From: a virus
IMG/VR virus record: IMGVR_UViG_3300028592_000024
Coordinates: 1-47,422 of that record
Length of the DNA stretch: 47,422 bases
Reading direction: 5' to 3' (one strand)
Within the stretch, counting starts at the first letter, position 1, and each line of letters opens with the position of its first letter. Positions 2,374 through 35,522 of this stretch are shown in pieces. Under the pieces are notes generated by a model. The model saw only the letters and a list, made by a program, of their open reading frames with translations, made no database searches and was not told where the DNA came from. Both the position numbers and the translations under genes were made by a program.

Positions 2374-2555
2374 GTGTTACTCCTTCTTGTAATATCGTTG
2401 TACCGTGGATTCCCATTCAAGTAGAACCTCCGTATCACACCGTAAACTCTAGATATAGAGATGTTGAACCTCTTCGCCAGGGCCGCATAAGACTCGCCTG
2501 CCAACCAATACCGGATCAACTCACGGTTGCGTCTGGTCTTCTCTGGTAGAGGCAT
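2370..2555 (-). CDS. small helix-turn-helix protein
   Basis: A basic protein of 61 aa starting MPLPEKTRRNRELIRYW, with a clear HTH: the GESYAALAKRFNIS helix pair followed by a recognition helix ISRVYGVIRRF, similar to sigma-region-4/MerR-type small phage HTH proteins. The ATG at 2555 is chosen because the longer frame lies inside the upstream gene; it overlaps the end of the thymidylate-synthase-like gene by about 35 bp. Its stop overlaps the TTG start of the DUF3310-MazG gene. It probably binds DNA as a regulator; the target is unknown. Confidence 0.62.
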   Translation of the reverse strand: MPLPEKTRRNRELIRYWLAGESYAALAKRFNISISRVYGVIRRFYLNGNPRYNDITRRSNT

Positions 2556-3765
2556 TAACCACCCTCTTGTACCTCGTCTCTGTCCACATTGTAGCCGCAA
2601 TCTTCCAGGCGAAATCTTTGATCTGAAGGATACGCTTCCTTACCTGTGTTGCCGGTGACCCTAGCTTGTAGTGGTGGAACGCCGAGAACATGGGCTGTGC
2701 TACTGTCCTGAAGAACGGCTCGTCCCAGTTCAATGAGTCTATCATCTCCACAGAACGCTCAGTTGGATTCTGATTGATGTCAACAAAATCCTTTAGTTCT
2801 CGATCAAACACTGTCCAGTTATGAACCAATGGGACATGGTTCTTGCTGGTGTCACTAGCCAGATTCTGAATAGCCTGCACATCCCTACCAGACTCAAGCC
2901 ACTCCTCCGGGTTCCAATTGTTGGTGTAGGCGTGCAGATTATTGGTAACGTGGTGATACTTCCCGACCTGCACACCAAGGTGTGCGGCTAGATATTCCTG
3001 GAGGAAAGTAAAATGCACATAGTTGGCTCCGAACAGTCCCCAGATCATGTCATTACTCCTGTTAACGACAGTCATGTCTAGCCACCGGTTGGGCAAGAAG
3101 ATGTTATCTGGGTCGCCAACACAGTTCGGACAGGTGAATGGGGACTCGTCAAGCTCTGCCGCACGCTCTGGTGTCCAGTTACCCTTGCATGTTGGGCAGA
3201 CCGGGTCCGTACGCAGGGCGAACATAACCACCAAGTTACAACACACATCCTTGGAGTTATCTATCCTCAGTAGATCGCCCCCCACATTCCACATTGACAA
3301 CACCGCACGCCTACTGTGGGGGTTGGCTCTCAGGTGGTTGATGATTACCTGGAGTTGGTCAACGTAGGTTGGTGGCTCCAGCATTCCGCCGTGTTTACTG
3401 ACGTAGTCAGCGTTGCCATCCTCAATCATATAACGACGCCACCTATACCCGTAAGCACCATTGAACGTCATTCCATCGTCGCTAAACTCGGCCATCCTCT
3501 TGACGTAGTACTGCAACGGAGCCACATCATTCCTGCCAGCTAGCATCCACAATGCTTCGTACAGGTGGAAGAACGGGTTACAATCCCGTGCAGGGTTGAG
3601 CAGTACCCTGGCTTTAGGATTGTGATAGGTGATGGTGATTGGCTCCGGATGGTAGATGCAGTCACCGTACCGACTGGGTGTCTTCTCGACCAGTGCCCTA
3701 CCTGTGTGGAACAACTCGACTACTTGGTGAAACGCATCCGCTAAGTCTCTGTACTTCAGGTGCAT
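2521..3765 (-). CDS. thymidylate synthase family enzyme (TS or dUMP hydroxymethylase) with inserted zinc ribbon
   Basis: About 414 aa from the ATG at 3765, which has a strong AGGAGG site 5 nt upstream; an upstream in-frame start lacks one. Core thymidylate-synthase motifs are present: SRRAVLSMW near 151, the catalytic-Cys segment KDVCCNL near 172-178, and RSNDMIWG at 236-243. The Asn in FGANYVHF (about 248) lies where TS has the Asn that recognises the uracil ring, so dUMP rather than dCMP is the likely substrate. Between the catalytic Cys and RSND an extra segment carries CPTC (190-193) and CPNC (212-215), a zinc ribbon not found in ordinary ThyA. Together with the hydroxymethyl-dU-kinase-like gene at 5043-5918 it may be a dUMP hydroxymethylase; ordinary dTMP synthesis remains possible. 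Confidence 0.85.
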   Translation of the reverse strand: MHLKYRDLADAFHQVVELFHTGRALVEKTPSRYGDCIYHPEPITITYHNPKARVLLNPARDCNPFFHLYEALWMLAGRNDVAPLQYYVKRMAEFSDDGMTFNGAYGYRWRRYMIEDGNADYVSKHGGMLEPPTYVDQLQVIINHLRANPHSRRAVLSMWNVGGDLLRIDNSKDVCCNLVVMFALRTDPVCPTCKGNWTPERAAELDESPFTCPNCVGDPDNIFLPNRWLDMTVVNRSNDMIWGLFGANYVHFTFLQEYLAAHLGVQVGKYHHVTNNLHAYTNNWNPEEWLESGRDVQAIQNLASDTSKNHVPLVHNWTVFDRELKDFVDINQNPTERSVEMIDSLNWDEPFFRTVAQPMFSAFHHYKLGSPATQVRKRILQIKDFAWKIAATMWTETRYKRVVNASTREDQTQP

Positions 3766-3874
3766 GGTATCCTCCTGTCTTAGTCGGGCGACTATCTTCC
3801 TAATGTTAACAGAACTAAACCTCAAAATCAACAGCCCCTCCGTGTATCCCGTCCAAATTTTTATCGAATATCTA

Positions 3875-4340: not shown

Positions 4341-5049
4341 CCCTCCGCCCTATGCAAAACATCATCCTGTCAAGCATAGGGCATCCCACCCCATCCTGCA
4401 TCATTCTATCCAGTTCTGCACGGTAACATACCGTGTGGAACTGGTCTCTTAATCGACTCAACCTCCTGGCGAAGTTGGCTAGAGACTTGTCTCTGCTATG
4501 GTGGTACTCCAGTACCAGCTTGTTGCACGGAGGTATAAGATCGGCGTCTATTATACCAAGCTCAGACCCCTCAATATCCATTTTCACCCCATCCCAACCA
4601 CCTTGTAGCAACCCAGCCCACACGTTAGGTACTAGTCTGCTATGCTTGTACCCTCGAACTCTCATCACGGTATGCCTAGCCGTATTGCTAGGGTCTCCGT
4701 TGTGATACAGGTCAACCTCATGACAGTTGTGTTCCGTAACGGCAGCCATGTGGCAGTCTGCCCACGGGCAGTTTCTCTGGAGGAGAGTATAGTTATCCTC
4801 ATCTGGTTCGTAGCAGGTGACTCTCGCTCCGGCCAGGTGGCAGTAGAGTGCGAACACTCCGATGTTAGCTCCTAGATCTAACCATCGTTCCCCAGGCAGC
4901 ACGTCGAATCCCACCTTCACCTTTCGATACGACTTGTCCTTAAATACCTCTCGTATGGTGTGACTATCAGTAGTGTCTGGTCTATACCGAAAGTTAACAC
5001 CCTGTATCTTGGTAACCACCAGTTTCTTGCTGGAAACTCTTATCACCAC
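4333..5049 (-). CDS. FkbM-family SAM-dependent methyltransferase
   Basis: 238 aa. The SAM-binding motif I is LDLGANIGVFALY (near 58-70), followed by the acidic YEPDEDNY of motif II and the family-typical VKMDIEGSELGII. FkbM enzymes generally O-methylate sugars or small hydroxylated substrates. The gene starts at GTG (5049; a second GTG follows directly) and overlaps the end of the hydroxymethyl-dU-kinase-like gene by 7 nt, with AAGGAG just upstream. The two proteins are therefore made together. A role in methylating a modified base or its sugar is plausible from context only; capsule or host-glycan modification is an alternative. Confidence 0.8.
   Translation of the reverse strand: MVIRVSSKKLVVTKIQGVNFRYRPDTTDSHTIREVFKDKSYRKVKVGFDVLPGERWLDLGANIGVFALYCHLAGARVTCYEPDEDNYTLLQRNCPWADCHMAAVTEHNCHEVDLYHNGDPSNTARHTVMRVRGYKHSRLVPNVWAGLLQGGWDGVKMDIEGSELGIIDADLIPPCNKLVLEYHHSRDKSLANFARRLSRLRDQFHTVCYRAELDRMMQDGVGCPMLDRMMFCIGRRVT
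4347..4382 (+). terminator. possible hairpin terminator after the winged-helix gene
   Basis: GCCCTATGC (4347-4355) pairs with GCATAGGGC (4374-4382), a 9-bp stem with an 18-nt loop starting 7 nt after the stop codon. No U-tract follows, and the sequence also codes for the end of the converging FkbM gene, so a terminator role is uncertain. Confidence 0.3.
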
Positions 5050-5918
5050 TCGTCTCCTTTCCCATCATAAAGACCCCGTGTCCTACCCTCGTGGAGCCTG
5101 GTTCGCTCCCACTTGTCATACTCACACATGCAGTTTTGGAAGTCTATGGCTTCCATCCTAGCCACCAGGTGTTTGTTCAGCCTCCTACTCAACCTTTCCT
5201 TAACCTCTTTCATCTCAACCTGGAACTGTCGTCCGCTCACCTTGTACCGCATGTCTCGCTCATACAGCCGGTTCAGACCCTTAACCGAACCCGGTCCTAC
5301 GGGGAACCAAGTCCACCGATCGGCCCACTCACCCGTCACCGCCCAACGCAAGTCTGCTACTATCTGGCTAGCTATGAACTTGCTCACACCTGGAAACCCC
5401 TGCAAATCCATCCAGGTTGACCGCATGCTAAACGGGGTTATATCTGGTGCCATACGATACATGGTGTCACAGACTATGTTGATAACCTGATACACCTTAG
5501 TCTGCTTCTCACGGTCTCGACAGCCGTGATTGCCGGTTATCAGGTACGCTGCGGAGAAGTTTTTCAACCCATGTCTACTCCTTTCCTCCAGAAGATCTGT
5601 TAGTCGGGTAGGCTCCCATACGTGAGGAAATCCTACAGCCTCTAGTGAATCAACCCTGTTAAGGTGTCTAGCCAGGGTTGCAGCCAACAGTATGTTGGGG
5701 TGGTCCTTGTAGGGCGTATACCAGTTCTTGATCAACCAAGAAGACACCTTGTCGTCTGCCCTGACTACGTTGCAGAACTTCCTACTCTGCAGAATCCTGT
5801 CATCTGTCCAGGGCTTGGGCAAACCCATCTTCTTCTTCATACGAATCTGCTCCCGCTCGGTTACCCAGTATACCAGTCGCTCGAACGGGGGTAGCTTACC
5901 GGCATCACTTACTAACAT
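5043..5918 (-). CDS. putative DNA base hypermodification protein (5-hmdU DNA kinase helical-domain family)
   Basis: 291 aa. The N-terminus (FERLVYWVTEREQIRMKK, then PKPWTDDRILQSRKFCNV and REDDKVSSWL-like spacing) matches what I know of the HMUDK_hel family, formerly called alpha-glutamyl/putrescinyl thymine pyrophosphorylase. Members accompany dUMP hydroxymethylases in phages with hypermodified thymidines. No P-loop kinase motif is visible, so this looks like the stand-alone helical domain. Conserved GFPGVSKFIASQIVADL (near 195-211) resembles a helix-hairpin-helix segment. It lies between RNR upstream and the FkbM methyltransferase downstream, with overlapping ORFs. The family call rests on my memory of the motif pattern; the exact reaction is not established here. 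Confidence 0.72.
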   Translation of the reverse strand: MLVSDAGKLPPFERLVYWVTEREQIRMKKKMGLPKPWTDDRILQSRKFCNVVRADDKVSSWLIKNWYTPYKDHPNILLAATLARHLNRVDSLEAVGFPHVWEPTRLTDLLEERSRHGLKNFSAAYLITGNHGCRDREKQTKVYQVINIVCDTMYRMAPDITPFSMRSTWMDLQGFPGVSKFIASQIVADLRWAVTGEWADRWTWFPVGPGSVKGLNRLYERDMRYKVSGRQFQVEMKEVKERLSRRLNKHLVARMEAIDFQNCMCEYDKWERTRLHEGRTRGLYDGKGDEW

Positions 5919-7810: not shown

Positions 7811-7839
7811 ATTATAAAAGCAGGAGTTGCTCCTGGCAA
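7811..7839 (-). promoter_or_regulatory. leftward promoter with palindrome in the spacer, upstream of RNR
   Basis: On the minus strand: TTGCCA, 17-bp spacer, TATAAT (plus-strand 7834-7839 and 7811-7816). A palindrome CAGGAG-CAA-CTCCTG (7821-7835) covers the end of the -35 and the spacer, a good operator position. The same hairpin lies 9 nt after the polymerase stop and is followed by CTTTTAT, so it could also act as a weak terminator. The 138-nt leader to RNR contains a further ACCCGG/CCGGGT stem (7762-7783). Confidence 0.55.
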
Positions 7840-7843
7840 CGGG

Positions 7844-10225
7844 TCACGCCGCCAGTTCTAGTTTTACCCGAGTACCCTCGCTCCAGTTATTTGCGTGGTA
7901 CTCGCAGCTAACAGGCGTGGGGATACCGATATCGTTACCACCTTGCTCCATCAGCTTGCGAATCATCTGAATCTTGTCGTAGTTGTCTTTCCAAGGTTCT
8001 GCACCAGTGCCAGCGGGGAAGTCGAACACTAGCTCGTCATGAACCTGTAGTGCAATGTACGCCTGGTCAATCCTCTTATCAGTGTTGATGCTGTCGAGGA
8101 AAGCCTGGCAACGGATCATGGCCTTCATCATCCACCACATGGCAGTTCCCTGTATGTGATAGTTCAGGGGTACGGTCGGCAACACGGTATCCCACCTTGT
8201 TCTGGTACACAGTAACGGATAGCCACGCTCGGGATCAACCGTCTTGTCTGGTATTGTCTCGACGTAGCCGTGCTTGTTGGCGAAGGCAATCATGGAGTCG
8301 TTCAGCTTCTTGATGTTCTTGAACCGGGCCTGGATCATACGCTGACCACCCTTGACGTGATACGCTCTGTCAGCTGTGCCACTAGCCTCAACTGCCCCGT
8401 ACTGCACGGCGAAGTTACCGTTCTTCACCCACTGGTACAGGTCGCTGCCGTATCGTTTCTTGAACACCCTGCCGTCGATCATGGGCTTGGAGTGCTTACA
8501 CTTACAGCACTCGTCTTGCTTGGCCTTCGAGTTCTTGTTGTGCACCTCCTTCTTACACTCGGTACAGCTAAGACACAACTCAAACTTCTCCTTGTGTAAG
8601 ATATGACTAACTAGTAGGTGGTTACTGCCGAAGTAAGGAGGATCATTAGGACGCTCGAACAGGTCTATCATCTCCTTCTCTTTAGCCTCGTAAGCAGGCA
8701 GTCGTAGCTCAATGTTCTCGGCGTCTAAGCTCCACCACTCCCTACCCGGTGCGGGACCGAAGCAGTACCGTAGATTGAAACCCTCCTTCTTGCTGATGTT
8801 CTGCTCGTTGGGGTTCTGGCTGGACCACCTCAGTGTGTCCGTGCCGGTAGGGTTCAGGCTCGGGTGGAGTACATACCAGTCCTCAACCATCTTCTGTAAC
8901 ACCCTGTCCATCACTAGCTCTTGACTGAACAGTGGCACGGCGAACCTGCGGTAAGAGGATATGTAAGCCAGTGCTGTATCCCTCTTACGCTTGGCTGACA
9001 GGTTCTCGATGAACCGCTTCTGTAGTGACCTGTCTGGTAGCGTAGCCAGGTAGTACTCAAGGGCACCCTTGTCCAAAGTGGGGTTACTGGTCTTGGACTT
9101 CTTACCCCTGATTGGCTCTAGCTTTAGTACGTCAAAGCAGAAGGTTCTGATGGAATTGTTGACCGCACCCTTGGGTAGCACCAGATCGTAAGGCTCGACT
9201 ACCGTCTCACCAGTAGTCTCATCCACTAATCTCTCAACCTTAAACCCCTTGGCTATGTTCACGCATATCCGGCCAGCCCTCTCGGATTCCTCCAGGTACT
9301 CGCACTCCTGCTGATCTAACCTTGTGCCGCTGAAGGTGACACCCTTGCTCTCCATGCGATATGCCAGGCGTTGCCTCTGGAGAGAAACCATGTAGATCTT
9401 ATCCAGCTTCTTCTCCTGGATCAGCTTCCACATAACCTGCCACATCAGCACGGTTACCTGACTGTCCATGTTGGCGTACTCTATGGCCACCGTCCACCAA
9501 GGGTGTACGTCTTCGGAGTCAACTTCTGGAGGGTGATACTTCCAGCCGGGCCACTTGGTACGCCAGGCAGGTAACTTGTGATCCTGGCCATACTTGTCCC
9601 AGAGTTTCTTGCAGTTCTGGTATGCCGGGCTTTCAAGCCACTGGTAGTTAACCAGCGCTCTTGGCAGCCACGTATCGAGTTTCCAGGACTTATCGGTGGC
9701 TGATGGCATCTCCTCCAGAGAATCACTGGCGATACGCCAGGTCTTGAGCCTACGCCTGGTATAGTCTCGTGCCTTCTTGCATGCCTCTTCAAGCCTGTCT
9801 TCCAATGGCTTGATGTTCTTCCGTACGTACCGGCTGGCCATGCTGGTAAGGTCATGGTCTAAGTTAGAACCCAGCAGGTGCCCAGCTATCAGGGTGTCAC
9901 GGATGTTGTACCAGGGAAGCTTTGCTCCTGGAGAGAATGACTGTACAGGGTTGAACAACTCCAGTCCTGGCAGTATGGTGGCCAGTGCCCTTGCATCGAA
10001 CTTAGTGTTCTGAAGTATGGCCAACTCGCCACTGGCATAAACAGAGTCGAGTAACTCTTTCACCTCATCCAGTTCACCCGGTGGTATGATCGGCTGCCTG
10101 GTCTCAGGATCAACGAACCACTCCCAGTACTTGACCCTGCCGTCATCCCTACATGTGGTGACTATATAAGGCTTGGCCCCGTGGTTGAAGTCGATGCCCG
10201 TGGTCTCGGTGTCAATTGCTAACAT
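7844..10225 (-). CDS. polA: DNA polymerase I (family A) with 3'-5' exonuclease and a Cys-rich insertion
   Basis: Replicative polymerase, about 793 aa from ATG 10225 (preceded by GGGAGAG; an in-frame GTG six codons earlier is less likely). The exonuclease domain has DTETTG (5-10), NTKFDARAL and YANMD. The polymerase domain has motif A SLDAENIELRLP (Asp 501), a fingers helix WVKNGNFAVQYG with catalytic Lys 601, and motif C QVHDELV (729-731). The residue equivalent to E. coli 762 is Phe, a form reported to be common in virulent phages. Between motif A and the fingers helix an insertion carries C-x2-C-x2-C and CC-x-C-x-C-like clusters (residues 551-576), probably a zinc site. There is no 5' nuclease domain. 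Confidence 0.93.
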   Translation of the reverse strand: MLAIDTETTGIDFNHGAKPYIVTTCRDDGRVKYWEWFVDPETRQPIIPPGELDEVKELLDSVYASGELAILQNTKFDARALATILPGLELFNPVQSFSPGAKLPWYNIRDTLIAGHLLGSNLDHDLTSMASRYVRKNIKPLEDRLEEACKKARDYTRRRLKTWRIASDSLEEMPSATDKSWKLDTWLPRALVNYQWLESPAYQNCKKLWDKYGQDHKLPAWRTKWPGWKYHPPEVDSEDVHPWWTVAIEYANMDSQVTVLMWQVMWKLIQEKKLDKIYMVSLQRQRLAYRMESKGVTFSGTRLDQQECEYLEESERAGRICVNIAKGFKVERLVDETTGETVVEPYDLVLPKGAVNNSIRTFCFDVLKLEPIRGKKSKTSNPTLDKGALEYYLATLPDRSLQKRFIENLSAKRKRDTALAYISSYRRFAVPLFSQELVMDRVLQKMVEDWYVLHPSLNPTGTDTLRWSSQNPNEQNISKKEGFNLRYCFGPAPGREWWSLDAENIELRLPAYEAKEKEMIDLFERPNDPPYFGSNHLLVSHILHKEKFELCLSCTECKKEVHNKNSKAKQDECCKCKHSKPMIDGRVFKKRYGSDLYQWVKNGNFAVQYGAVEASGTADRAYHVKGGQRMIQARFKNIKKLNDSMIAFANKHGYVETIPDKTVDPERGYPLLCTRTRWDTVLPTVPLNYHIQGTAMWWMMKAMIRCQAFLDSINTDKRIDQAYIALQVHDELVFDFPAGTGAEPWKDNYDKIQMIRKLMEQGGNDIGIPTPVSCEYHANNWSEGTRVKLELAA

Positions 10226-10346
10226 GTTCACTCTCCCATCCACTAAGTAGTTGCTGGGCTTCTTCTACTGTGATATTCACGAACGCTAACAGTATAGTGT
10301 TGACAGGCGACGAGTCGCCACCTCCCTCACTATGTTCAGGTTCCAT
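10212..10346 (-). CDS. small acidic protein, 44 aa, overlapping polA start
   Basis: Starts ATG at 10346 behind a very strong TCTGGAGGAAAG ribosome site 4 nt upstream, reads MEPEHSEGGGDSSPVN and continues as a hydrophobic-acidic helix (ILLAFVNITVEEAQQLL). It ends inside the first codons of polA in another frame, so it is probably a coupling leader or a small binding partner. The function is unknown. Support is the strong ribosome site, the gap otherwise left between ParB-like and polA genes, and the overlap typical of this operon. Confidence 0.55.
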   Translation of the reverse strand: MEPEHSEGGGDSSPVNTILLAFVNITVEEAQQLLSGWESEHVSN

Positions 10347-10407: not shown

Positions 10408-11259
10408 TCAAGAGGCTTCTTTTGGCTCCGCTTGTTCGTTGAAGACGCGTAACTGTTCGAGCGTGCGCAGACAGTTCTTACTGTCCTTCTTCAGTCCTTT
10501 GTTGTAGTACTTGCACATAGTCTCGATCATACCCCTCTGCTTGGCACTGATATAGTTACCAACGTCGAGTAAGATTCTCCTAGGTGACACGTTCAGTTGC
10601 TCTACGAACCTGTCATCCTTGAGAATCTCACCTTGCCATGCAACCAGGGACACTACTCCATAGAAGAACAGTTCGGCCATAGCCTCATCCTGTCCTGGCC
10701 AGGTCTTCATCATAAGTGTCAGTGCTCGTTGCACCACGTCCTCACCGAATCTGGCAGTCAGTCTGTAGAGACTACCAAGACAGGCAATCTCCCCATACTT
10801 CAGAACACGTGACCCGGTCATGGTAGGTGACGTCGGTATAGCCAGTTTCATTCCAGCACCTTCGACGGCAGACTTGGCTGCCAGTGCAATAGGGTCTTGT
10901 GCAGTCAACGAAGTAACGAACATCTGTGCAGCGGAGACGGCAACCCTACCTCCGTTCAGAATCTTGAAGATCTGAGCCTCATACTGTGGCCCACTGCTTT
11001 CCAACATCAGACACTTCCAGTGTTCCATCCCCAACTTCATCATGGCCGTCATTCGTTGCAAACCGTCAATGATGTATAGCTTACCATCACTCCTTCTACC
11101 AACCGTCAGTACTCCTGCTGCTGCTGGCATGAAGTTCTTCTCGATCTTCCTGGCGTGTGGTTTGATACCACGCTGATAGGAGTTGTCTACCGTGAGTGTA
11201 GACAATAGAACCTTCTCGATCTTACCTTCCAGACTCCCACCGATTCGACGACTCGACAT
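10408..11259 (-). CDS. ParB/sulfiredoxin-fold-like protein
   Basis: 283 aa. The N-terminal 100 residues fit the ParB_N/Srx-like fold: a YQRG segment near 28-31, then strand YIIDGLQRMTAM with the DGLQR signature at 65-69 (ParB-family DGxHR position). The rest is helical with no recognised motif. ParB-like proteins in phages include DNA-binding, nuclease and nucleotide-using enzymes; some are reported beside thymine hypermodification genes, so a role in that pathway is possible. It follows the tRNA cluster and probably shares its promoter at 11902-11931. A second relative lies at 17768-19237. Confidence 0.66.
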   Translation of the reverse strand: MSSRRIGGSLEGKIEKVLLSTLTVDNSYQRGIKPHARKIEKNFMPAAAGVLTVGRRSDGKLYIIDGLQRMTAMMKLGMEHWKCLMLESSGPQYEAQIFKILNGGRVAVSAAQMFVTSLTAQDPIALAAKSAVEGAGMKLAIPTSPTMTGSRVLKYGEIACLGSLYRLTARFGEDVVQRALTLMMKTWPGQDEAMAELFFYGVVSLVAWQGEILKDDRFVEQLNVSPRRILLDVGNYISAKQRGMIETMCKYYNKGLKKDSKNCLRTLEQLRVFNEQAEPKEAS

Positions 11260-11387
11260 AGTGTTCTCCTGTTACTAAGACCAACGGTTAAAGAAACTGC
11301 CTGTCTTTCCTCACCACGCCGGACAGGCACGACGTTCCTCGGGACACTGGTCTGTGGGAAGTGACTTTCACAGCCAGGTTGGTGATT

Positions 11388-11455
11388 ACTACCGGTAGGA
11401 ATCGAACCCACCCTCCCGCAAGGTTGCGACCCTTACGTGGACCACCAGGAGTAGC
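11388..11455 (-). tRNA. tRNA-like gene with shortened D-arm, anticodon probably CGC
   Basis: 68 nt. A good T-arm (GTGGG-TTCGATT-CCTAC) and an anticodon hairpin with loop GTCGCAA (U33 present, anticodon CGC, Ala codon GCG) are visible. The acceptor pairs 6 of 7 with a C-C mismatch at the seventh pair. The D region is only 13 nt, forming at best a 3-bp stem TGG/CCA, so this is an atypical or degenerate tRNA. It sits 3 nt after the neighbouring tRNA-like element, which shares the 5' sequence CTCCTGGTGG. Confidence 0.5.
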
Positions 11456-11458
11456 ATT

Positions 11459-11551
11459 GCTGCTGGCAGGAATCGAACCTGCCCTAAAACTTCATAGCTC
11501 CCGTCTACTGGCATGTCACTATGAAGCTCCCCTCTAGCCACCAGGAGCAGC
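11459..11551 (-). tRNA. tRNA-like element, 93 nt, abnormal anticodon arm
   Basis: The T-arm (GCAGG-TTCGATT-CCTGC) and acceptor (GCTGCT/AGCAGC) are good. Where a 17-nt anticodon arm should be, an 8-bp stem CTTCATAG/CTATGAAG encloses a 21-nt loop, so no anticodon can be assigned. It could be a type II tRNA I fold wrongly, a tRNA with an insertion in the loop, or a decayed tRNA. It lies in one transcript with the flanking tRNA genes. Confidence 0.42.
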
Positions 11552-11815
11552 GTAGCAGACTTTACACCCACGGTCTGCCAGCGTGGCGGAATCTACCAAC
11601 CTCGAACAGGGAGGTAAGTAGGTCGGTAGCGTGTTTGGTGGTGGGCTGCCAGCGTTATCTCCTCCGCCCACCGGGGAGTTTAACCCTGTCGCCGATGCGT
11701 CCAAGCAACAGGGGTTCGACGTACGGCCTGCTAAGGATACCCACAAGGTGTCTCCTACCTCCTTAGCAGCCTGGGACACTGGCCTTGCCCAGCAACGAGC
11801 ACGGCAGGAGAAATA
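11552..11815. other. non-coding spacer in the tRNA cluster
   Basis: No supported gene. It contains a 10-bp hairpin CTGCTAAGGA (11728-11737) with TCCTTAGCAG (11760-11769), loop 22 nt, and another stem-loop GCAGAC/GTCTGC near 11550-11575. Frames are open on the minus strand but lack convincing starts. Further decayed tRNA pieces are possible. Confidence 0.4.
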
Positions 11816-11886
11816 GGCTCCGGCAGGACTCGAACCTGCACTACTAGATTTAGAGTCTAGTCGTCTTCCAGTTGACTCACGGAGCC
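11816..11886 (-). tRNA. amber suppressor tRNA, anticodon CUA
   Basis: 71 nt, canonical cloverleaf. Acceptor GGCTCCG pairs 7/7 with CGGAGCC. The D-loop AACTGGAA has the normal eight bases with G18G19. Anticodon stem CTAGA/TCTAG encloses loop CTCTAAA, so U33 is followed by anticodon CTA, reading UAG. The T-arm is GCAGG-TTCGAGT-CCTGC. CCA is not encoded. A consensus promoter lies immediately upstream. The amino acid charged cannot be told from sequence. Several genes here end in TAG (RNR, terminase ATPase, metzincin, a heme protein), so the tRNA would cause some readthrough unless it is weak or timed. Confidence 0.9.
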
Positions 11887-11901: not shown

Positions 11902-11931
11902 ATTATAAATCTCCCCCACCTATCTTGTCAA
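11902..11931 (-). promoter_or_regulatory. consensus sigma70 promoter for the tRNA cluster, palindrome over -10
   Basis: Minus strand: TTGACA (plus 11926-11931), 18-bp spacer, TATAAT (plus 11902-11907). The -10 lies inside the palindrome GAGATT-TAT-AATCTC (11900-11914), a likely operator. The predicted start of transcription is a few bases before the amber tRNA, so it probably drives the tRNAs and the ParB-like gene. Confidence 0.75.
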
Positions 11932-12196: not shown

Positions 12197-13675
12197 TCAC
12201 TCGGAGTCGTCACCGAGCAGGTCATCCCAAGGAACGTTACGATACTCCTGTTCGGTAGCTAAGTCTTGAACTGTCACAGTCCGGGTGCTAGGCTGCACAC
12301 CGATCACCTTTACCTCAGTTCTCTTGCCAGGCTTCTTAGACCGTGCGTTGATGGGTTTATAGTACCACACCTGATCCTCTTCAGGCATGAACTCATCCTC
12401 GCCACCCTCCTCTGCTGGTGCCTCATCGGTCTGATCCTCCACTTCTTCAGCAGGAGGCTCGCCACCCATGATCCATCCTTTCACCTGCTCCCAGCTTTCG
12501 GAGTTGAGAACGTCCGCCTCCGTGTACCCGGCATTGATGGCCAGGTTGGTGAGTTCCGCCTGAGCCTCGCCGTCCATACGGTTGCAACGCTCAACCAAAC
12601 CATCCAGATCACCAAACTCATCGAACGGTTCCGGCTCTGGTGCCGGTCGTGCCATAGGCTTCTTGCCTGCCGGAGTAGGTGCTGGTCTGACGGCAGGCTT
12701 GGCCGGAGTAGGTGCCTTGGTTGGCGGAGCCTTTGCTGTCATCTTGGCAGGAGCGGCAGTTGGCTTAGCTGTCGGAGCAGTCGGTCTTGCCATCGGCTTA
12801 CTAGCCGGAGCAGCAGGCTTCTCTGTGGCAGCCATAGGCTTACCCGCCGTGGGCTTCTGGGTAGAGGTAGCAGTAGCCTTCTGTGGTGCACCAACCGTAG
12901 GCTTGGCAGAGGATTTGGCCACCGGGTGCATACCCTGATACTGCCGTCCTTGCGTTGCGGGTGGTGCCACTCTCCCGTTCCCAGTGTTGTCAACCGTGTC
13001 GTTCACCTCCTGAGGTGTATAATCCTTTACCCATCCGTGCCACGAGTGTAGGGTCTTTGGTTCCCTACCGGCGAAGGGGTTAGCTTCCATGGCTGCCTCT
13101 TCGGTTGGCCATGCACCGGGGTTGCGAGATGGCTTGAGGTTGCCGGTCTTAGCATCTTCTGACCAGATACGCCACTTGCCGTCGTCGCTCTGTGCAACCA
13201 CCTCCTTATCCATCTTGTAGGTCCGGAACCTGAAGTAGATGGGGGGATCAGCGTTTTTGAGATCCTCACACACCTGCTCGAGATCCTCAAACTCCAGGGT
13301 ACTGGTCTCCTGACCAAGCTGACGGAGAACGTTGTACACGAACCCCATGTGATCCTCAACAGTCTCCCTCGTACGACCTGGGGTATCATACAGAGGTTCC
13401 GTGATCGAGGTTAGCTGGCCCTCGGTACGGATGCCATTGAACTCCTTTGGTGTGTCAACACGACCACCGGCGTAGAAGTACCACTCACCCTCGTTCGGAC
13501 CAGACTTGTACTTGTCAAACTTCATCTCCGTCAGCATGGCGACACCGCCATCAATTCCTGGAGGAAGCTCACCCATGAACCCGTACTTCGTCTCGGCATC
13601 CTTGTGCTGCTCGTGTGCGGCAGCCAGACGGTCACGCATGCTGGACACGAAATCGGACTGGTGTTGCTTCGCCAT
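12197..13675 (-). CDS. putative ssDNA-binding protein with Ala/Pro/Lys linker and acidic tail
   Basis: 492 aa. Residues 25-190 are a beta-rich domain (FDKYKSGPNEGEWYFYAG, VEDHMGFVYNVLRQLG, IYFRFRTYK) like uncharacterised phage proteins usually placed with Sak4-type recombinases and thought to bind ssDNA by an OB fold. Residues 250-345 are a low-complexity linker of AP/KP/TA units. The C-terminal part holds an acidic stretch (PAEEVEDQTDEAPAEEGG) followed by a small SH3-like segment (VWYYKPINARSKK, VKVIGVQPSTRTVTVQ) and the acidic end LLGDDSE, as in SSB tails. It starts with AAGGAG 9 nt upstream. The SSB role is inferred from layout and neighbours (Sak4-like ATPase, nuclease), not from a proven motif. 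Confidence 0.5.
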   Translation of the reverse strand: MAKQHQSDFVSSMRDRLAAAHEQHKDAETKYGFMGELPPGIDGGVAMLTEMKFDKYKSGPNEGEWYFYAGGRVDTPKEFNGIRTEGQLTSITEPLYDTPGRTRETVEDHMGFVYNVLRQLGQETSTLEFEDLEQVCEDLKNADPPIYFRFRTYKMDKEVVAQSDDGKWRIWSEDAKTGNLKPSRNPGAWPTEEAAMEANPFAGREPKTLHSWHGWVKDYTPQEVNDTVDNTGNGRVAPPATQGRQYQGMHPVAKSSAKPTVGAPQKATATSTQKPTAGKPMAATEKPAAPASKPMARPTAPTAKPTAAPAKMTAKAPPTKAPTPAKPAVRPAPTPAGKKPMARPAPEPEPFDEFGDLDGLVERCNRMDGEAQAELTNLAINAGYTEADVLNSESWEQVKGWIMGGEPPAEEVEDQTDEAPAEEGGEDEFMPEEDQVWYYKPINARSKKPGKRTEVKVIGVQPSTRTVTVQDLATEQEYRNVPWDDLLGDDSE

Positions 13676-17767: not shown

Positions 17768-19237
17768 TTACGTGGCGACTCGAACGGGCTTCTTCTTACC
17801 TGGCTTAGACTCTGGTTCAGGTGTGGGTTCCGGTTCGGGTACCAGATCAAATCCTTGATCCGGTTCAAGGTTGGGTTCAGCCTTCCTGGCCTTACGCTTG
17901 TCACGGTTCTCCTCTCTACGCTTGATCTCCTGTTCCTTGGCAGCCTCGATCTCCTTCTTGGTTGGCTGACCCTTAGCAGGAGGCGGCTCGTCCCCGTCAC
18001 CCTGGTCCTTTGGATCGCCAAGGTCGATGCCACCCAGGTCCGGGCACTCAGCGATGGTACTGATCTGGGTCTCTGGGTCAGTGTCGTACTTGGGCTTAAC
18101 AGAGCCGTCGGTCATCTTCTGGTTACTGGCGAACAGTCTCCACGCCTTCACCAGGATAGCCAGCTTCTCACTGTTAGTGGACACCAACTTGAGCAGCTTC
18201 CTCGCTACGTTCAACACGCCATCACCCTTGCCGAACGCGGCCCAAAATTCAACGGCTTTGTCCCACATAGAGAAGTCAATCAACTCCTCCTTCGCCTCAC
18301 CACCTCTGACGGCTGCCAGGTAGACACCCTCACCGGTCTGACTTGCTGCCATCATATACATCATACCGGCGGCGAATCCCAGGTTGATATACTCTTTGAT
18401 GGAGTTGTCACTGTTCTCATCATAGACGTGACTGACGCAACGCATGAGCCTGGGGTGCTTCTCCAGGAAGTTCAACACCTCGTCGTGTGTACGTCTCGGG
18501 GAGAACGAATGCTCTCCGTTGCCGGTCCGGTGCCACAACAATCGGATAGCCATGTCGGTGATCTTCGCGGCAGCCTTGCGATCCTCTGGCTTCTTGTTGC
18601 GGAAGTACTCTGAGCGGAAGATCACGTCGCTGATGGAACGCGCCTTGCAGGTGTCCATCGTGTTGACCACCCTATCGGTCTCGCTCAACCCGTAGACGAT
18701 CAGCTTGTCTATCACACAGGGCTGACCATCCCACAACTCCATCCACCGTGCGTGCTTCTGCCGCAACTGGTCTGCCACGATCAGGGCAGGTAGGGTGTGC
18801 TGCCCGTTGAGAACCAGTGCCGTCTTGCCGATCAGGATAGGCTCGCCGTTCACGGTCTCTCTGTCACCGTTGGGTGAACCATCTTCGTGCATGCCGTTAG
18901 GTCCAGCCCACCGTCTGTTCAAGATGGTCTGCGTAAGGTTACTAAAGTTGCTCTGGTAGAACGGCCTGTTGTTGATGTTGTTCAGACACCACACCGGCTT
19001 GTTGTCGGCGTCCTTGAACAACGGGTCTAACCACTTGATACCGTACTGGTCCTTGAATTTCTTAACCTCATCTTCATCCCAGGTTGCCCCGAGTAGGAAG
19101 ATAGCATGTTCGACGGTGACTGGGGTAGCACCCCACGCCTCTTCGATAGCAACCTCCGGGTACTTAACCGGACGCTCTACTGCCTGGTCAACCAGTTTGC
19201 CGGACGCCTTAGTCTTCTTGGGGGTTTTCGTAGCCAT
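17768..19237 (-). CDS. large ParB/sulfiredoxin-fold-like protein with charged C-terminal tail
   Basis: 489 aa. A ParB-like core is suggested by ILIGKTALVLNGQHTLPAL (136-151), where NGQHT occupies the DGxHR position with Thr in place of Arg. A long helical region follows (160-370) and then a highly charged low-complexity tail rich in KKEIEAAKEQE and PEPEPTPEPE units. Similar proteins in other phages have no established function. It could be nucleotide-using or DNA-binding; the changed last motif residue argues for caution. AAGGAG precedes ATG. Confidence 0.62.
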   Translation of the reverse strand: MATKTPKKTKASGKLVDQAVERPVKYPEVAIEEAWGATPVTVEHAIFLLGATWDEDEVKKFKDQYGIKWLDPLFKDADNKPVWCLNNINNRPFYQSNFSNLTQTILNRRWAGPNGMHEDGSPNGDRETVNGEPILIGKTALVLNGQHTLPALIVADQLRQKHARWMELWDGQPCVIDKLIVYGLSETDRVVNTMDTCKARSISDVIFRSEYFRNKKPEDRKAAAKITDMAIRLLWHRTGNGEHSFSPRRTHDEVLNFLEKHPRLMRCVSHVYDENSDNSIKEYINLGFAAGMMYMMAASQTGEGVYLAAVRGGEAKEELIDFSMWDKAVEFWAAFGKGDGVLNVARKLLKLVSTNSEKLAILVKAWRLFASNQKMTDGSVKPKYDTDPETQISTIAECPDLGGIDLGDPKDQGDGDEPPPAKGQPTKKEIEAAKEQEIKRREENRDKRKARKAEPNLEPDQGFDLVPEPEPTPEPESKPGKKKPVRVAT

Positions 19238-19265
19238 TGTTATAGCTCCTTGTCGTTGGAGGGAT

Positions 19266-19574
19266 TCACTTAGCCGTCGGGCGTCCGACGGTCGTTGTCT
19301 TACGAATCAGCCGTTGCTCGTTGCCGTCCGTCGCTTCAATAGGAACAGCCTCTTGCTGAACCTGCTTTAACTGCATCCTCCTGAATCGGCACAATTCCAC
19401 TAAGGTAACTGATTGCAGGTCTTCATCACACAACCTACATACAGGTATCTCCCTAGATATCTCCTGTCTGGTTTCGTTGTGCTTCAGCCCCGGCACACTG
19501 CGGTATACCCTATGTACCCTCATCGTGTTATTATGTGGAACCCATACGCCGCACACCCTACATCTGTAACTCAC
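19266..19574 (-). CDS. zinc-ribbon protein, 102 aa
   Basis: Begins YRCRVCGVWV with a second pair CRLCDEDL near 46-49, forming a likely treble-clef or zinc ribbon, then a basic helical region (CRFRRMQLKQVQQ). GTG start at 19574 with AAGGAG about 10 nt upstream. First gene after the palindromic promoter at 19624-19652. It may be a transcriptional or DNA-binding adaptor. Confidence 0.62.
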   Translation of the reverse strand: MSYRCRVCGVWVPHNNTMRVHRVYRSVPGLKHNETRQEISREIPVCRLCDEDLQSVTLVELCRFRRMQLKQVQQEAVPIEATDGNEQRLIRKTTTVGRPTAK

Positions 19575-19623
19575 CGCTCATCATCTCCTTGTCGTTCGGG
19601 TTATAGGCGAAACTCTGCCGCCT

Positions 19624-19652
19624 ATTATAAACACTGGTTTAACCAGATTCAA
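19624..19652 (-). promoter_or_regulatory. leftward sigma70 promoter with operator palindrome in spacer
   Basis: Minus strand: TTGAAT (plus 19647-19652), 17-bp spacer, TATAAT (plus 19624-19629). The spacer holds the perfect palindrome CTGGTT-T-AACCAG (19633-19645), ideally placed for a repressor. A related palindrome CACTGGTTAACCAGTG occurs inside the helicase gene at 20796-20811. Confidence 0.75.
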
Positions 19653-19661
19653 CTGCAAAAT

Positions 19662-19704
19662 TTTTAGCCGCACAAATTTTGTTCAGAAATTCATGCGGCT
19701 AAAA
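19662..19704 (-). terminator. hairpin terminator after the leftward helicase operon
   Basis: TTTTAGCCGCA (19662-19672) pairs with TGCGGCTAAAA (19694-19704), an 11-bp stem with a 21-nt AT-rich loop, followed on the minus strand by A-TTTT. It lies between the stop at 19713 and the next promoter, the expected place for a terminator. Confidence 0.6.
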
Positions 19705-19712
19705 GGTTTACG

Positions 19713-20000
19713 TCAACTTTGGTTTTCAGACGGTAGTAATACCGTTTCAATTCTCAGGTTCACTATACGCTCGCTAGGGTGGCAGCCATACCCCATTATG
19801 AAACTCTCTGGAGAGGTAGTGTAGTACAGGCTAATGAACTCCTCTGCTTGGTATCGGCTATCGAATACGTGGCTTGGCCGAGGATACAGCCAATGGAACG
19901 TAAACCTCCACCATGATTCCCTTTCTCTCCAGAAGAACACCTCATACAGTATGCGGTTTGGGTCTCTCATGTCTATAAGGTCAGCCACTACCAGGAACAT
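19713..20000 (-). CDS. hypothetical protein, 95 aa
   Basis: Unrecognised. Starts MFLVVADLIDMRDPNRIL and contains an aromatic stretch (VFFWRERESWWRFTFHWLY). It lies in the run of small genes below the helicase, with a weak GGAGG site. The spacing fits a membrane-associated or SH3-like small phage protein; there is no firm evidence for a function. Confidence 0.6.
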   Translation of the reverse strand: MFLVVADLIDMRDPNRILYEVFFWRERESWWRFTFHWLYPRPSHVFDSRYQAEEFISLYYTTSPESFIMGYGCHPSERIVNLRIETVLLPSENQS

Positions 20001-20009
20001 AGTAGCCTC

Positions 20010-20306
20010 CTAGTAACCAGGGAACACCAGTACCGACACGAACTGTGGTATCTCTTCTGGAGGGAAGGTGTGGATGCTATACTCCATGATCTGCCCGTTG
20101 CGTACTATGTATTGCGGTATCTCAACCCAGGGGCCACGCCCCCTTCTTATCTCACTGGCTTGCTCGTCGTACTTCGCCTTGTCGAAGAACTCCAGCATGT
20201 GTTCTTCTAGTGGGCATATGTCTGAACACTGTAGGAATACGCAGCCGATGATCGTTCCCTTCGGCAGCTTCTGCAGATACACAATCAAGTCTTCTGCTGT
20301 CATCAT
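20010..20306 (-). CDS. small conserved phage protein, paralogue A
   Basis: 98 aa. It shares with the gene at 23432 the pattern LI-x-LQK-P-T-IG, then SD, EF-x2-KA, YIVRNGQIMEY, PQF and a final LVFPGY, so the two are paralogues. The function is unknown. It ends in TAG and starts next to the helicase stop. Confidence 0.66.
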   Translation of the reverse strand: MMTAEDLIVYLQKLPKGTIIGCVFLQCSDICPLEEHMLEFFDKAKYDEQASEIRRGRGPWVEIPQYIVRNGQIMEYSIHTFPPEEIPQFVSVLVFPGY

Positions 20307-20308
20307 GG

Positions 20309-22573
20309 TTAGCTCACATAGGTTAGTTCATGGATTGCCCTGGTGACGCCAACATAGAGGAGGTTATACTCCTGTTCCAACTGCCATGCCATCTTGGCCG
20401 AGGGGTGTGGGCAGGGTGACTCCTCTGGTTGTAGGAAGTACACCCGTTCAGACTCAAGACCCTTGGCCTTGTGAATACTACTGAACTTGACGCCAGGACT
20501 GACGGTGTCGTCTGTGAACAAGGACTTGATCTTGTGGATCACCCCCTCCACCGTTAACTGACCATCGGTGAAGCACATCACACAGTCAGCCCTGTCATTG
20601 ATGCCCATGATACGGGTCTCTGAAGGCATCTTCTTCGCTTGCTCCTTGGTTATCTCACCGAACCTCCACTCGTCCAGCTTACCAATCAAATCAGGCACAC
20701 TCTCAGCACCCATCCTGTTGACGAGATTGACAAGGTCATCACCGATCCTCCTCCCTTGTATCATGGCTCGCCTACCCTTCTTGAGAAGGCGGAAGCACTG
20801 GTTAACCAGTGGTGCGTTGGTTCTGCACAACACCATGTCACCGTCCTTGGTTGTTGGTAAGTAAGTATCCTCGTATGGAATCTCTCGCACACCCTGATCC
20901 CAGTAGTTACTCGACCGCTGAGTGGTGTACTTACCGTGACTGATCTTCCCTTCGTGCGTGTCGGGGAAGTAGGAGAAGTCTGGTACGATACGCCTAGCCT
21001 CCTCTACGATGGCCTTGCCACACCGTCTGGTAACGGTGAGGGGTAACTCCACACAACCGGCAGGGGTGTCATCCAACTCCTTCAGCATGCGAGCCATGCT
21101 CTGAGTATCGGCTCCAGTGAAACCATATATAGCCTGCCTGTCGTCACCGCACATGACCAACCGCTTACCCATCTTCCTAGCAAGGGCGTGTTGGCACCTG
21201 CCCAAGTCCTGGAACTCGTCGATCAGGAGCAGGTCGTATCGGAACACTGGTAGGTCCAGGATGACAGGCAACCAGACCATGTCAGAGTAGTCGATCATAC
21301 CCCTACTCTTCGGATCCTTGCACTTCTTGAGTATGTCAGGCACCAACTCCAGCAGGTTGTCACGATGAGTACCAACCTCCACGTCGTACCTGTCGATCAG
21401 GTAGTCCAGATTATCCTCAGTTGGGTCACTGAGTGTGACCTTACAGAGCCGTACCAACTCTGCCGCAGCCGATGGTAGGATTGGGTCTTTCTCCCTGAGT
21501 ACCCTAATGTCCAGACCAGTTAGTTCCTCCATGATCAGGTATGTTACTAGTCTGTCATCGTCGGGCACCTCCAGTTTACCCATCGACTTGAGTACCGACC
21601 GGTAACCCAGACCGTGCATAGTCTTGGCCTCTACTCCTTGAGGCACCCTGTCTTTCAACACCCTTGCGATAGACGTATTGTATGCACACATGCAGATGAA
21701 CCTGGCACCCTTACTCTCCTCCAGAGAATCCCATACCAGAGCCTGTTGCTCTGATGGTGTGATCTTGGGGATGCCGCCAGTCACCATGTCCAAGCCACCG
21801 ATCAGAGTTGTAGTCTTACCAGTACCAGCCCTCGCCTTCACCATCAGGTGTGGTGGTAGTCCACTACGACGATGTTCTCTGGAGGAAAGGGGATCATGTT
21901 CATGGGCTACCACTGTAGGCTCAGTCCCACTATTCGGTATAACTCGGAGGGGCTTTTTGATCTTGCTTCTGAGCATTGCGGATAGTCCAGACTTGCCACC
22001 ACCGGTTGATCTCGTACTCCCTGGTTCGGCAGAGTTCTCGCTGGTGTCGTTCGTACCAGTTGACGGTGAACTCTGAGAACTCGCCTGCGATCTCACCACA
22101 GGGGTTGAGGATGGCTGGTACTGTGAGGGTTGGGTAGGGTCCGGGCTATGCTCACCCTCAGATTCATCGGTGATATCGACATCCGTATCTTCTACAGACT
22201 GCACACCACCTTCGGAGGGGGTTGTAGATGTTTCGGTAGGGTTTGCTTCCTCGCTGATCTTCCCATCGAGAGTAGCCTCGCTCGCCTCCGCGAACGGGTC
22301 ATCCACCACGGTGATAAGGTCTGGAGCTTCAACCTTCTTCACCTCTACTCCAACCCTACCAGTGTTGTTACTCCCGCCGTAGGGCTGTACCTCTACACGG
22401 AACTTCTGTGCCGAGCGGAACACAACCTGTCTCTTGGTGGTAAGGTTGGTACAGTAGTAACGCCAACCCCTACCACGGAACCCTTGCTCAATACGGTCCA
22501 CTCTTACCGTGGTGAGTTTATCACTCACCTTGGCCCTGTAGGTCTTGCCAATCTGAATCTCGTCGTGTCGCAT
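20309..22573 (-). CDS. UvrD/Rep-like superfamily 1 helicase
   Basis: 754 aa. The N-terminal 65 residues form a small beta-rich domain, followed by a Ser/Thr/Glu/Pro low-complexity linker (to about 200). Helicase motifs then run in order: Walker A KARAGTGKTTT, Walker B LLIDEFQDL, motif III MCGDDRQAIYGFTGA, a VTRRCG motif IV, and at the C-terminus SSIHKAKGLESERV and LLYVGVTRA (motifs V-VI). It is a complete 3'-5' helicase, probably for replication or repair. It has a GGGAG site and is preceded by an extended -10 promoter. Confidence 0.9.
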   Translation of the reverse strand: MRHDEIQIGKTYRAKVSDKLTTVRVDRIEQGFRGRGWRYYCTNLTTKRQVVFRSAQKFRVEVQPYGGSNNTGRVGVEVKKVEAPDLITVVDDPFAEASEATLDGKISEEANPTETSTTPSEGGVQSVEDTDVDITDESEGEHSPDPTQPSQYQPSSTPVVRSQASSQSSPSTGTNDTSENSAEPGSTRSTGGGKSGLSAMLRSKIKKPLRVIPNSGTEPTVVAHEHDPLSSREHRRSGLPPHLMVKARAGTGKTTTLIGGLDMVTGGIPKITPSEQQALVWDSLEESKGARFICMCAYNTSIARVLKDRVPQGVEAKTMHGLGYRSVLKSMGKLEVPDDDRLVTYLIMEELTGLDIRVLREKDPILPSAAAELVRLCKVTLSDPTEDNLDYLIDRYDVEVGTHRDNLLELVPDILKKCKDPKSRGMIDYSDMVWLPVILDLPVFRYDLLLIDEFQDLGRCQHALARKMGKRLVMCGDDRQAIYGFTGADTQSMARMLKELDDTPAGCVELPLTVTRRCGKAIVEEARRIVPDFSYFPDTHEGKISHGKYTTQRSSNYWDQGVREIPYEDTYLPTTKDGDMVLCRTNAPLVNQCFRLLKKGRRAMIQGRRIGDDLVNLVNRMGAESVPDLIGKLDEWRFGEITKEQAKKMPSETRIMGINDRADCVMCFTDGQLTVEGVIHKIKSLFTDDTVSPGVKFSSIHKAKGLESERVYFLQPEESPCPHPSAKMAWQLEQEYNLLYVGVTRAIHELTYVS
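21875..21890 (+). repeat. representative copy of the dispersed motif TTCTCTGGAGGAAAGG
   Basis: The core TCTGGAGGA (either strand) occurs about 15 times in the window by eye: near 4775, 5585, 9711, 10354, 13949, 21717, 21877, 25263, 25443, 27905, 34806, 43786, 44100, 45974 and 46445. Eight more share TCTGGAGG. About half of the sites in leftward genes are in each orientation, and many lie inside coding sequence, so Shine-Dalgarno use does not explain them. Confidence 0.6.
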
Positions 22574-32738: not shown

Positions 32739-32766
32739 ATTATACCAAAAAATTTTTTTTTGTCAA
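32739..32766 (-). promoter_or_regulatory. perfect-consensus leftward early promoter
   Basis: Minus strand TTGACA (plus 32761-32766), 16-bp all A/T-rich spacer (A8T6GG), TATAAT (plus 32739-32744). Both hexamers are exact. It should be a very strong early promoter for the small-gene array. Adjacent TTGCGCAA palindromes could be its operators. Confidence 0.82.
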
Positions 32767-34830: not shown

Positions 34831-35520
34831 ATGACCAAAATCATAGACCCATTAAAGTTTGGCAAGATGCTGTGGCCCAACCTGAAGTTCTACAGGGAGC
34901 AGAAGGACATCATCTACTCGGTTAGGGATAATGATGAAACCTTCGTGGTGGCTGGCAACATGCTCGGCAAGGACTTTGTGTCGGCATTCATCATACTATG
35001 GTTCTTCATCTCTAGAACCCCTTGCAGGATCGTAACCACCTCTGCCGACTACAGTCAGTTAGAAGCAGTGCTGTGGGGTGAGATTAGGAACTTTATTCAG
35101 ACTTCCAGGTACAATCTGTACCACACAAAGGGCGGACCCTTGATCGTGAACGACATGCACATAAGAAAGGCTATACACCCAGAGGGTAGTAAGGGTCCGA
35201 AGGACTTTCAGATGTGTGGCTTGAGCTACATCATGGCTAAGGTGTCTAAGAAGGGTGAGGGAATGCTGGGTCACCACGTAACAGAGGATTCAGTGGAGGG
35301 AGGTATCACAGAAGACGGTATTCCCAGAACCCTGTACGTAGCAGACGAGGCATCTGGTGTTGATGACGTGTCTTATAAGAGAGCAGATACCTGGGCTGAT
35401 AGGAAGCTGGTGATTGGCAACCCATATCCTTGTAACAACTTCTTCTTCAACGGTGTTAAGGGAGGAGATATCAAGCATAAACCCAAGAAGCACCGACGAC
35501 CTAACTATGTGGAGATCTAG
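34831..35520 (+). CDS. terminase large subunit, ATPase half (split gene)
   Basis: 229 aa. Walker A-like VVAGNMLGKD (39-48) and Walker B RTLYVADEASG (166-175, catalytic Glu173), then a KLVIGNPYP coupling motif. This is the motor ATPase of a large terminase, but the protein stops at TAG (35518) before the nuclease domain, which is a separate gene in another frame starting 3 nt later. An AAGGGC site lies upstream. It may assemble with the nuclease protein in trans. Confidence 0.82.
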   Translation: MTKIIDPLKFGKMLWPNLKFYREQKDIIYSVRDNDETFVVAGNMLGKDFVSAFIILWFFISRTPCRIVTTSADYSQLEAVLWGEIRNFIQTSRYNLYHTKGGPLIVNDMHIRKAIHPEGSKGPKDFQMCGLSYIMAKVSKKGEGMLGHHVTEDSVEGGITEDGIPRTLYVADEASGVDDVSYKRADTWADRKLVIGNPYPCNNFFFNGVKGGDIKHKPKKHRRPNYVEI

Positions 35521-35522
35521 AT

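What the first reader, a model, noticed from the sequence alone, without database searches (positions are those of the whole stretch)
11816..11886. Amber suppressor tRNA with a near-perfect cloverleaf and its own promoter
Anticodon CUA in a canonical 71-nt tRNA directly downstream of a consensus promoter. Yet RNR, terminase ATPase, metzincin, a heme protein and other genes end in TAG. The tRNA might be timed, inefficient, recode host mRNAs, or extend selected phage proteins.
Basis: partly seen in the sequence, partly recalled or inferred. Interest (0 to 1): 0.75.

Follow-up and report, generated by a model that had tools for sequence, protein, structure and literature searches.

The report
Phage amber tRNA amid tRNA-like RNAs
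The virus carries a genuine transfer RNA gene whose anticodon would read a stop codon, yet it still uses that stop codon normally; in its relatives the same place holds tRNA-shaped RNAs, most of which have lost the part that reads codons, so the tRNA shape itself may be what matters there.

Summary
A 72-nt canonical tRNA with anticodon CUA lies at 11815-11886, minus strand (ARAGORN; Rfam 62 bits), 15 nt behind a perfect TTGACA-18-TATAAT (0.015 exact matches expected per window). The phage uses the standard code: TAG ends 15 of 58 called genes, readthrough would add little, and relatives without this tRNA use TAG as often. A CUA tRNA in a phage without known recoding has precedent (Mycobacterium phage Alice). 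Acceptor determinants (U73, G2-C71, C3-G70) fit bacterial Cys, not Gln or Tyr.

The surprise is the surroundings. Two further tRNA-like RNAs follow in tandem (11458-11551, 11387-11455) with acceptor and T arms but no canonical anticodon arm. In loci of polymerase relatives, 30 acceptor+T-arm elements lie in sense within 6 kb upstream of pol, 1 elsewhere, none antisense. About 22 of 30 tabulated elements have no 5-bp/7-nt anticodon arm. One class, on four independent contigs, replaces it with a hairpin that covaries fully (0 of 500 shuffles). So the conserved thing at this locus seems to be the tRNA body, with decoding optional. Whether the CUA tRNA is charged and suppresses UAG is untested. 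Function is inferred.

The parts
11902..11931 (-). sigma-70-type promoter, TTGACA-18 nt-TATAAT, 12/12 match
   Evidence: 2 exact matches in window vs 0.015 expected
11815..11886 (-). tRNA gene, anticodon CUA, 72 nt including discriminator U73, no encoded CCA
   Evidence: identical in L002/L003
11552..11814 (-). non-coding, strongly structured spacer (e.g. CTGCTAAGGA/TCCTTAGCAG hairpin)
   Evidence: Folding; Rfam finds no known family above its gathering score and no HDV-like ribozyme match
11458..11551 (-). tRNA-like RNA 1: 6-bp acceptor, GGUGG D-loop region, long anticodon-position hairpin with 21-nt loop, T arm GGCAGG-UUCGAUU-CCUGCC
   Evidence: (sub-threshold tRNA 20.5 bits)
11387..11455 (-). 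tRNA-like RNA 2: paralogue of RNA 1, two bases behind it; acceptor change G4-C to A4-U and T-stem change C-G to U-A are compensatory
10408..11259 (-). next gene downstream, DUF6551 / ParB-like
7844..10243 (-). family A DNA polymerase; in relatives the tRNA-like elements lie in sense upstream of it
12197..13675 (-). conserved 492-aa gene on the other flank of the locus (no family match)

Best explanation
Shown: a real tRNA(CUA) gene, at the head of a transcript from a strong sigma-70-type promoter, in a phage that uses UAG as an ordinary stop. It is the first of three tandem tRNA-shaped RNAs in a locus that many relatives fill, in sense upstream of DNA polymerase, with tRNAs or tRNA-like RNAs. 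Most of these keep the acceptor and T arms (often also U8 and the D-loop GG) but have no canonical anticodon arm. Inferred: what is selected at this locus is the tRNA body, which host RNase P, RNase Z, CCA-adding enzyme, EF-Tu or a tRNA-attacking defence would recognise, so these RNAs act as processing signals in the pol leader or as tRNA decoys. The CUA tRNA is a member that looks fully canonical but reads no sense codon. If it is charged, most likely poorly and with cysteine, it would give only low-level UAG readthrough.
For: tRNA and promoter. Standard code: TAG ends 15/58 called genes; relatives lacking the tRNA use TAG in 132/373 long ORFs against 8/34 here; the RNR TAG falls at the family's C-terminus. 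Locus: strict acceptor+T-arm scan finds 24 elements against 0.3 in shuffles; relaxed scan finds 30 in sense within 6 kb upstream of pol, 1 elsewhere in sense, 0 antisense. Anticodon arm absent in about 22 of 30, with anticodon-position loops of 2-21 nt. U8, not required by the strict scan, is kept in 14/22 of these (p 1.4e-4). Class I elements: 100% paired cells, covariation 0.803 vs 0.291 shuffled, 0/500. Paralogues RNA 1 and RNA 2 show compensatory changes. In a control tRNA cluster (phage Alice), 18 of 19 scan hits fall on ARAGORN tRNAs and one on the tmRNA. Cys acceptor determinants: (PMC9976931).
Against: The CUA tRNA itself has an intact, well-formed anticodon arm, unlike its neighbours, and it alone has a dedicated consensus promoter, which fits a decoding role. 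About 8 of 30 elements are normal tRNAs, mostly CAU. The scan requires intact acceptor and T arms, so decayed tRNAs with broken acceptors would be missed (ascertainment bias); recently decayed tRNAs would also keep U8. Only four class I sequences were available. No expression, processing or charging data exist. Many relatives show no element at this place.
Confidence: 0.5

Rival explanations
1. Working amber suppressor: the tRNA is charged by a host synthetase (Cys most likely) and gives low-level UAG readthrough of phage or host genes, for example to make minor extended proteins or to disturb host termination late in infection.
For: Canonical anticodon arm with U33/A37, strong own promoter, Cys acceptor determinants U73, G2-C71, C3-G70. 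Some bacterial CysRS variants can charge tRNA-Cys with a stop anticodon (UCA; PMC7609411). Cluster C1 mycobacteriophage Alice also carries a CTA tRNA.
Against: CysRS normally needs the GCA anticodon. No phage gene gains a conserved domain by readthrough and the two possible fusions have no fused relative. TAG usage is not clearly lower than in relatives without the tRNA. No other relative has a CUA tRNA here.
Confidence: 0.3
2. Relics: the locus is a landing place for acquired tRNA genes that then decay; the odd elements are pseudogenes and the CUA tRNA is a recent anticodon mutant of a sense tRNA.
For: One element looks like tRNA-Ile2 with exactly the CUCAU of the anticodon loop deleted (L072). 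The elements are diverse in sequence. The scan favours those with intact acceptors.
Against: Class I covariation on four independent contigs, all cells paired; compensatory changes between RNA 1 and RNA 2; the control tRNA cluster shows no such decay; strand and place are strictly kept.
Confidence: 0.15
3. Stop-codon recoding: the phage, or part of its gene set, reads TAG as an amino acid as some crAss-like phages do.
For: CUA tRNA present.
Against: TAG is a true stop in 15/58 genes, including the RNR whose end is supported by homology; no gene with internal TAG found; U73 instead of the G73 of glutamine tRNAs.
Confidence: 0.02
4. Pyrrolysine tRNA.
For: ARAGORN prints 'tRNA-Pyl' for the CUA anticodon; a sixth anticodon-stem pair A26-U44 can form.
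Against: Normal D-loop GG, two bases before the D stem, normal T loop, and no PylS in the window or in the overlapping contig G001.
Confidence: 0.01

Closest known systems
CTA 'suppressor' tRNA of cluster C1 mycobacteriophages (Mycobacterium phage Alice, ALICE_151)
   Same: Phage-encoded canonical tRNA with CUA anticodon in a record annotated with the standard code
   Different: There it sits among more than 20 normal tRNAs and a tmRNA; here it heads a locus of tRNA-like RNAs without canonical anticodon arms and has its own consensus promoter
Suppressor tRNAs of TAG-recoded phages, incl. those next to theta ribozymes (PMC10879173, PMC9523058)
   Same: CUA anticodon in a phage genome
   Different: No in-frame TAG, TAG used as stop, discriminator U73 instead of the G73 of glutamine tRNAs, no HDV-like ribozyme at the 3' end
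Phage tRNAs with anticodon-loop changes that evade anticodon nucleases (PMC10264068) or other tRNA-cutting defences (PMC11555353)
   Same: Phage tRNAs whose anticodon loop departs from the host's, possibly because of tRNA-attacking defences
   Different: There the tRNAs still decode; here most elements have no anticodon loop at all
tRNA-like RNAs that are not adaptors: tmRNA tRNA-like domain, mascRNA, plant-virus tRNA-like structures
   Same: Acceptor + T arm kept while the anticodon arm is replaced; mascRNA is the best Rfam resemblance of RNA 2, below threshold
   Different: No mRNA-like tag ORF identified, scores far below the family cut-offs, and the elements stand in a phage pol leader

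Membership tests
Amber suppressor tRNA | Canonical cloverleaf with CUA anticodon in a 7-nt loop with U33 | tested here: met
Amber suppressor tRNA | Transcribed, matured and charged; suppresses UAG | not testable with these tools
   Promoter only; needs experiment
Code-15 (TAG-recoded) phage | In-frame TAG in genes and TAG avoided as stop | tested here: not met
   TAG ends 15/58 genes; relatives 132/373
Code-15 (TAG-recoded) phage | Suppressor of glutamine type (G73, weak first pair) | tested here: not met
   U73, G1-C72; the Gln determinants are from general knowledge
tRNA-Pyl | PylRS gene present | tested here: not met
   No TIGR02367 match in G000 or G001; host unknown
tRNA-Pyl | One base before D stem, short D loop, no GG/TUC elbow | tested here: not met
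   U8-G9, D-loop GG and UUCGAGU present; Pyl features from general knowledge
tRNA-Cys (bacterial identity, PMC9976931 Table 1) | U73, G2-C71, C3-G70 | tested here: met
   Sequence against table
tRNA-Cys (bacterial identity, PMC9976931 Table 1) | Anticodon G34 C35 A36 | tested here: not met
   Anticodon CUA; only A36 agrees
Theta (HDV-like) ribozyme-associated phage tRNA | HDV-like ribozyme with its cleavage-site G directly after the tRNA | tested here: not met
   Next base after the tRNA is A; no HDV-family match in Rfam scans
tmRNA | tRNA-like domain plus tag-encoding ORF, Rfam/ARAGORN tmRNA match | tested here: not met
   ARAGORN reports no tmRNA in the window or related loci; only weak local tmRNA matches below cut-off in L007 and L061

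The most novel reading that the evidence does not exclude
A lineage of uncultured, possibly planctomycete-infecting phages keeps, in sense upstream of its DNA polymerase gene, a new family of structured tRNA-like RNAs that conserve the tRNA acceptor-T-arm body while having discarded the anticodon arm; the CUA tRNA of this window is a member kept out of sense decoding by its stop anticodon. They would act on tRNA-handling machinery (processing, decoy or defence evasion), not in decoding.
Probability: 0.4. Interest if true: 0.8.

Novelty: new variant of a known kind. Interest (0 to 1): 0.58.

Why it matters
A CUA tRNA in a standard-code phage alone is not new. But a conserved phage locus in which tRNA bodies are kept and anticodon arms are replaced, with covariation, would separate tRNA shape from tRNA decoding in phage biology. 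It would make the old question of why phages carry tRNAs testable in a system where codon supply cannot be the answer.

Tried and rejected
TAG readthrough extensions: 13 of 15 short or non-coding, two in-frame neighbours explained by TAGGAG Shine-Dalgarno overlap and without fused relatives. Terminase: the ATPase/nuclease ORFs are fused in most relatives (about 530-560 aa) but here are split by a frame change; suppressing the TAG adds one codon before TGA. Introns in the odd tRNAs: rejected because several anticodon-position loops are shorter than 7 nt (2-6 nt) and Rfam finds no group I intron in the stretches scanned. Theta ribozyme, tmRNA, tRNA-Pyl: not met. Phage-encoded release factor: none in G000/G001. 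L107, a relaxed class I match, is a chance hit without a T arm. BLAST of the tRNA against phages and plasmids gave only partial similarity to other tRNAs (best tRNA-Asn) and short matches. Host: pol in GTDB genomes gave one contig of an archaeal MAG only, so not informative. TIGR02996, a domain named for Gemmata obscuriglobus, occurs in the related L041 and suggests Planctomycetota, unproven.

Full report
What was checked. ARAGORN and Rfam both place one tRNA in the window, at 11815-11886 on the minus strand, with anticodon CUA. It has a 7-bp acceptor, a D-loop with GG, a 5-bp anticodon stem with loop CUCUAAA, a 4-nt variable region, a canonical T arm, U73 and no encoded CCA. Upstream is TTGACA-18-TATAAT, a 12/12 match; only two exact matches of this kind occur in the window where 0.015 are expected. 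The predicted start lies just before the tRNA. No terminator-like site was found on that strand before the downstream genes, so the promoter may also serve DUF6551 and pol.

Genetic code. In a hand-made list of 58 plausible genes, 23 end in TAA, 20 in TGA and 15 in TAG. In ORFs of at least 150 aa the window has TAG in 8/34, and 24 related loci, none of which shows a CUA tRNA, have it in 132/373. The RNR ends at its homologue's end. Readthrough extensions are short except for two pairs of neighbouring small ORFs whose TAG is part of TAGGAG; in-frame neighbours are as common after TAA or TGA, and no fused relatives were found. The terminase split is a frame change, not an amber stop. So TAG is a normal stop and the tRNA is not a recoding device.

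Charging. Of the bacterial identity sets tabulated in PMC9976931, the acceptor set of Cys (U73, G2-C71, C3-G70) is met in full. Gly (C2-G71, G3-C70), Tyr (A73) and, from general knowledge, Gln (G73) are not. The Cys anticodon determinants are absent, so charging may be weak. Some bacterial CysRS variants accept a stop anticodon (UCA) (PMC7609411). This is a prediction only.

The two neighbours. Behind a structured spacer of about 260 nt lie two tRNA-like RNAs two bases apart, 11458-11551 and 11387-11455. Both begin GCURCUCCUGGUGG and end with a T arm containing GGUUCGAUUCCU and a complementary acceptor strand. Rfam sees them only below threshold (tRNA 20.5 bits, mascRNA 20.9 bits). As paralogues they differ by compensatory changes in acceptor (G4-C to A4-U) and T stem (C-G to U-A). 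Neither has a canonical anticodon arm at the canonical place. RNA 2 has a 7-nt loop GUCGCAA on a 7-bp stem, so a CGC 'anticodon' cannot be excluded for that one.

The family. Polymerase relatives gave about 60 contigs. A strict scan for acceptor plus T arm found 24 elements against 0.3 in dinucleotide shuffles. A relaxed scan found 30 in sense within 6 kb upstream of pol (289 kb), 1 elsewhere in sense (705 kb) and 0 antisense. Whole-record tRNA searches add a few elsewhere. About 8 of 30 tabulated elements have a normal anticodon arm: the CUA tRNA and tRNAs with CAU (L004, L015, L016, L059 twice), UAG and UCU (L016); L004 and one of L059 failed the strict arm test for G-U pairs or position 33 but were called tRNAs by ARAGORN. 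The rest have extended hairpins or loops of 2-21 nt. U8, which the strict scan did not use, is kept in 14 of 22 (p 1.4e-4). In the tRNA cluster of phage Alice 18 of 19 scan hits fall on ARAGORN tRNAs and one on the tmRNA, so the oddness is not made by the scan.

Class I. The motif UGUGGUA-hairpin-UGAUAGGGCA-T arm occurs on four independent contigs or contig groups (L025, L029, L094, L095). Hairpin and T stem pair in every cell, with covariation 0.803 against 0.291 in shuffles (0/500), and all slid controls collapse. The hairpin loop is 3 to about 11 nt, so it does not keep an anticodon loop. This is the best evidence that these RNAs are selected as RNAs that do not decode.

Reading. Shown: tRNA, promoter, standard code, syntenic family, covariation. 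Inferred: selection for the tRNA body (processing signal in the pol leader, or decoy for tRNA-directed enzymes). The CUA tRNA fits as a member that reads no sense codon, but its intact anticodon arm and own promoter also fit a weak suppressor, and I keep that as the main rival. Limits: the scan is biased to intact acceptors; class I has four sequences; the host is uncertain (TIGR02996 in L041 points to Planctomycetota); no expression data.

Known or new. A CUA tRNA in a phage annotated with the standard code has a precedent in Mycobacterium phage Alice. Recoding phages, theta-ribozyme-linked suppressors (PMC10879173) and anticodon-loop mutants (PMC10264068) differ as listed. I found no paper on anticodon-less tRNA-like RNAs in phages in the searches made, which is weak evidence of novelty.

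Noticed in passing
window 34831-36605: Terminase large subunit is split into an ATPase ORF and a nuclease ORF in different frames; most relatives have one ORF of about 530-560 aa, a few (G014, G015, G017) also look split.
   Followed up: partly
window 32739-32766 (-): Second perfect TTGACA/TATAAT promoter (16-nt spacer, A/T tract), probably heading the leftward genes; a 1-mismatch one lies at 7839 (-) before the RNR.
   Followed up: no
window 2521-3831 and 5043-5918 (-): Thymidylate-synthase-like protein plus 5-hmdU DNA kinase helical domain: likely hypermodified thymine in the phage DNA.
   Followed up: no
L055 record (L072 1501-1567): tRNA very like tRNA-Ile2 of L016 but with exactly CUCAU of the anticodon loop missing.
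   Followed up: partly
L061 9008-9236: 229-nt tRNA-Cys-like RNA with U73 whose anticodon arm carries a large structured insertion closed by CACGATAAG/CTTATCGTG.
   Followed up: partly
G001 (L003 record, 49 kb), loci L104/L105: Near-identical contig extends the window by about 21 kb to the left (tape measure, glycosyltransferase-like, radical SAM genes), so the window is not a whole genome.
   Followed up: partly
G014 18067-21567: Relative's RNR matches in three pieces inside one 1196-aa frame, which suggests inteins.
   Followed up: no
L042 4893-5012: Loop GAUCGUU of the anticodon-position hairpin can pair with AACGAUC downstream: possible pseudoknot in a tRNA-like RNA.
   Followed up: no
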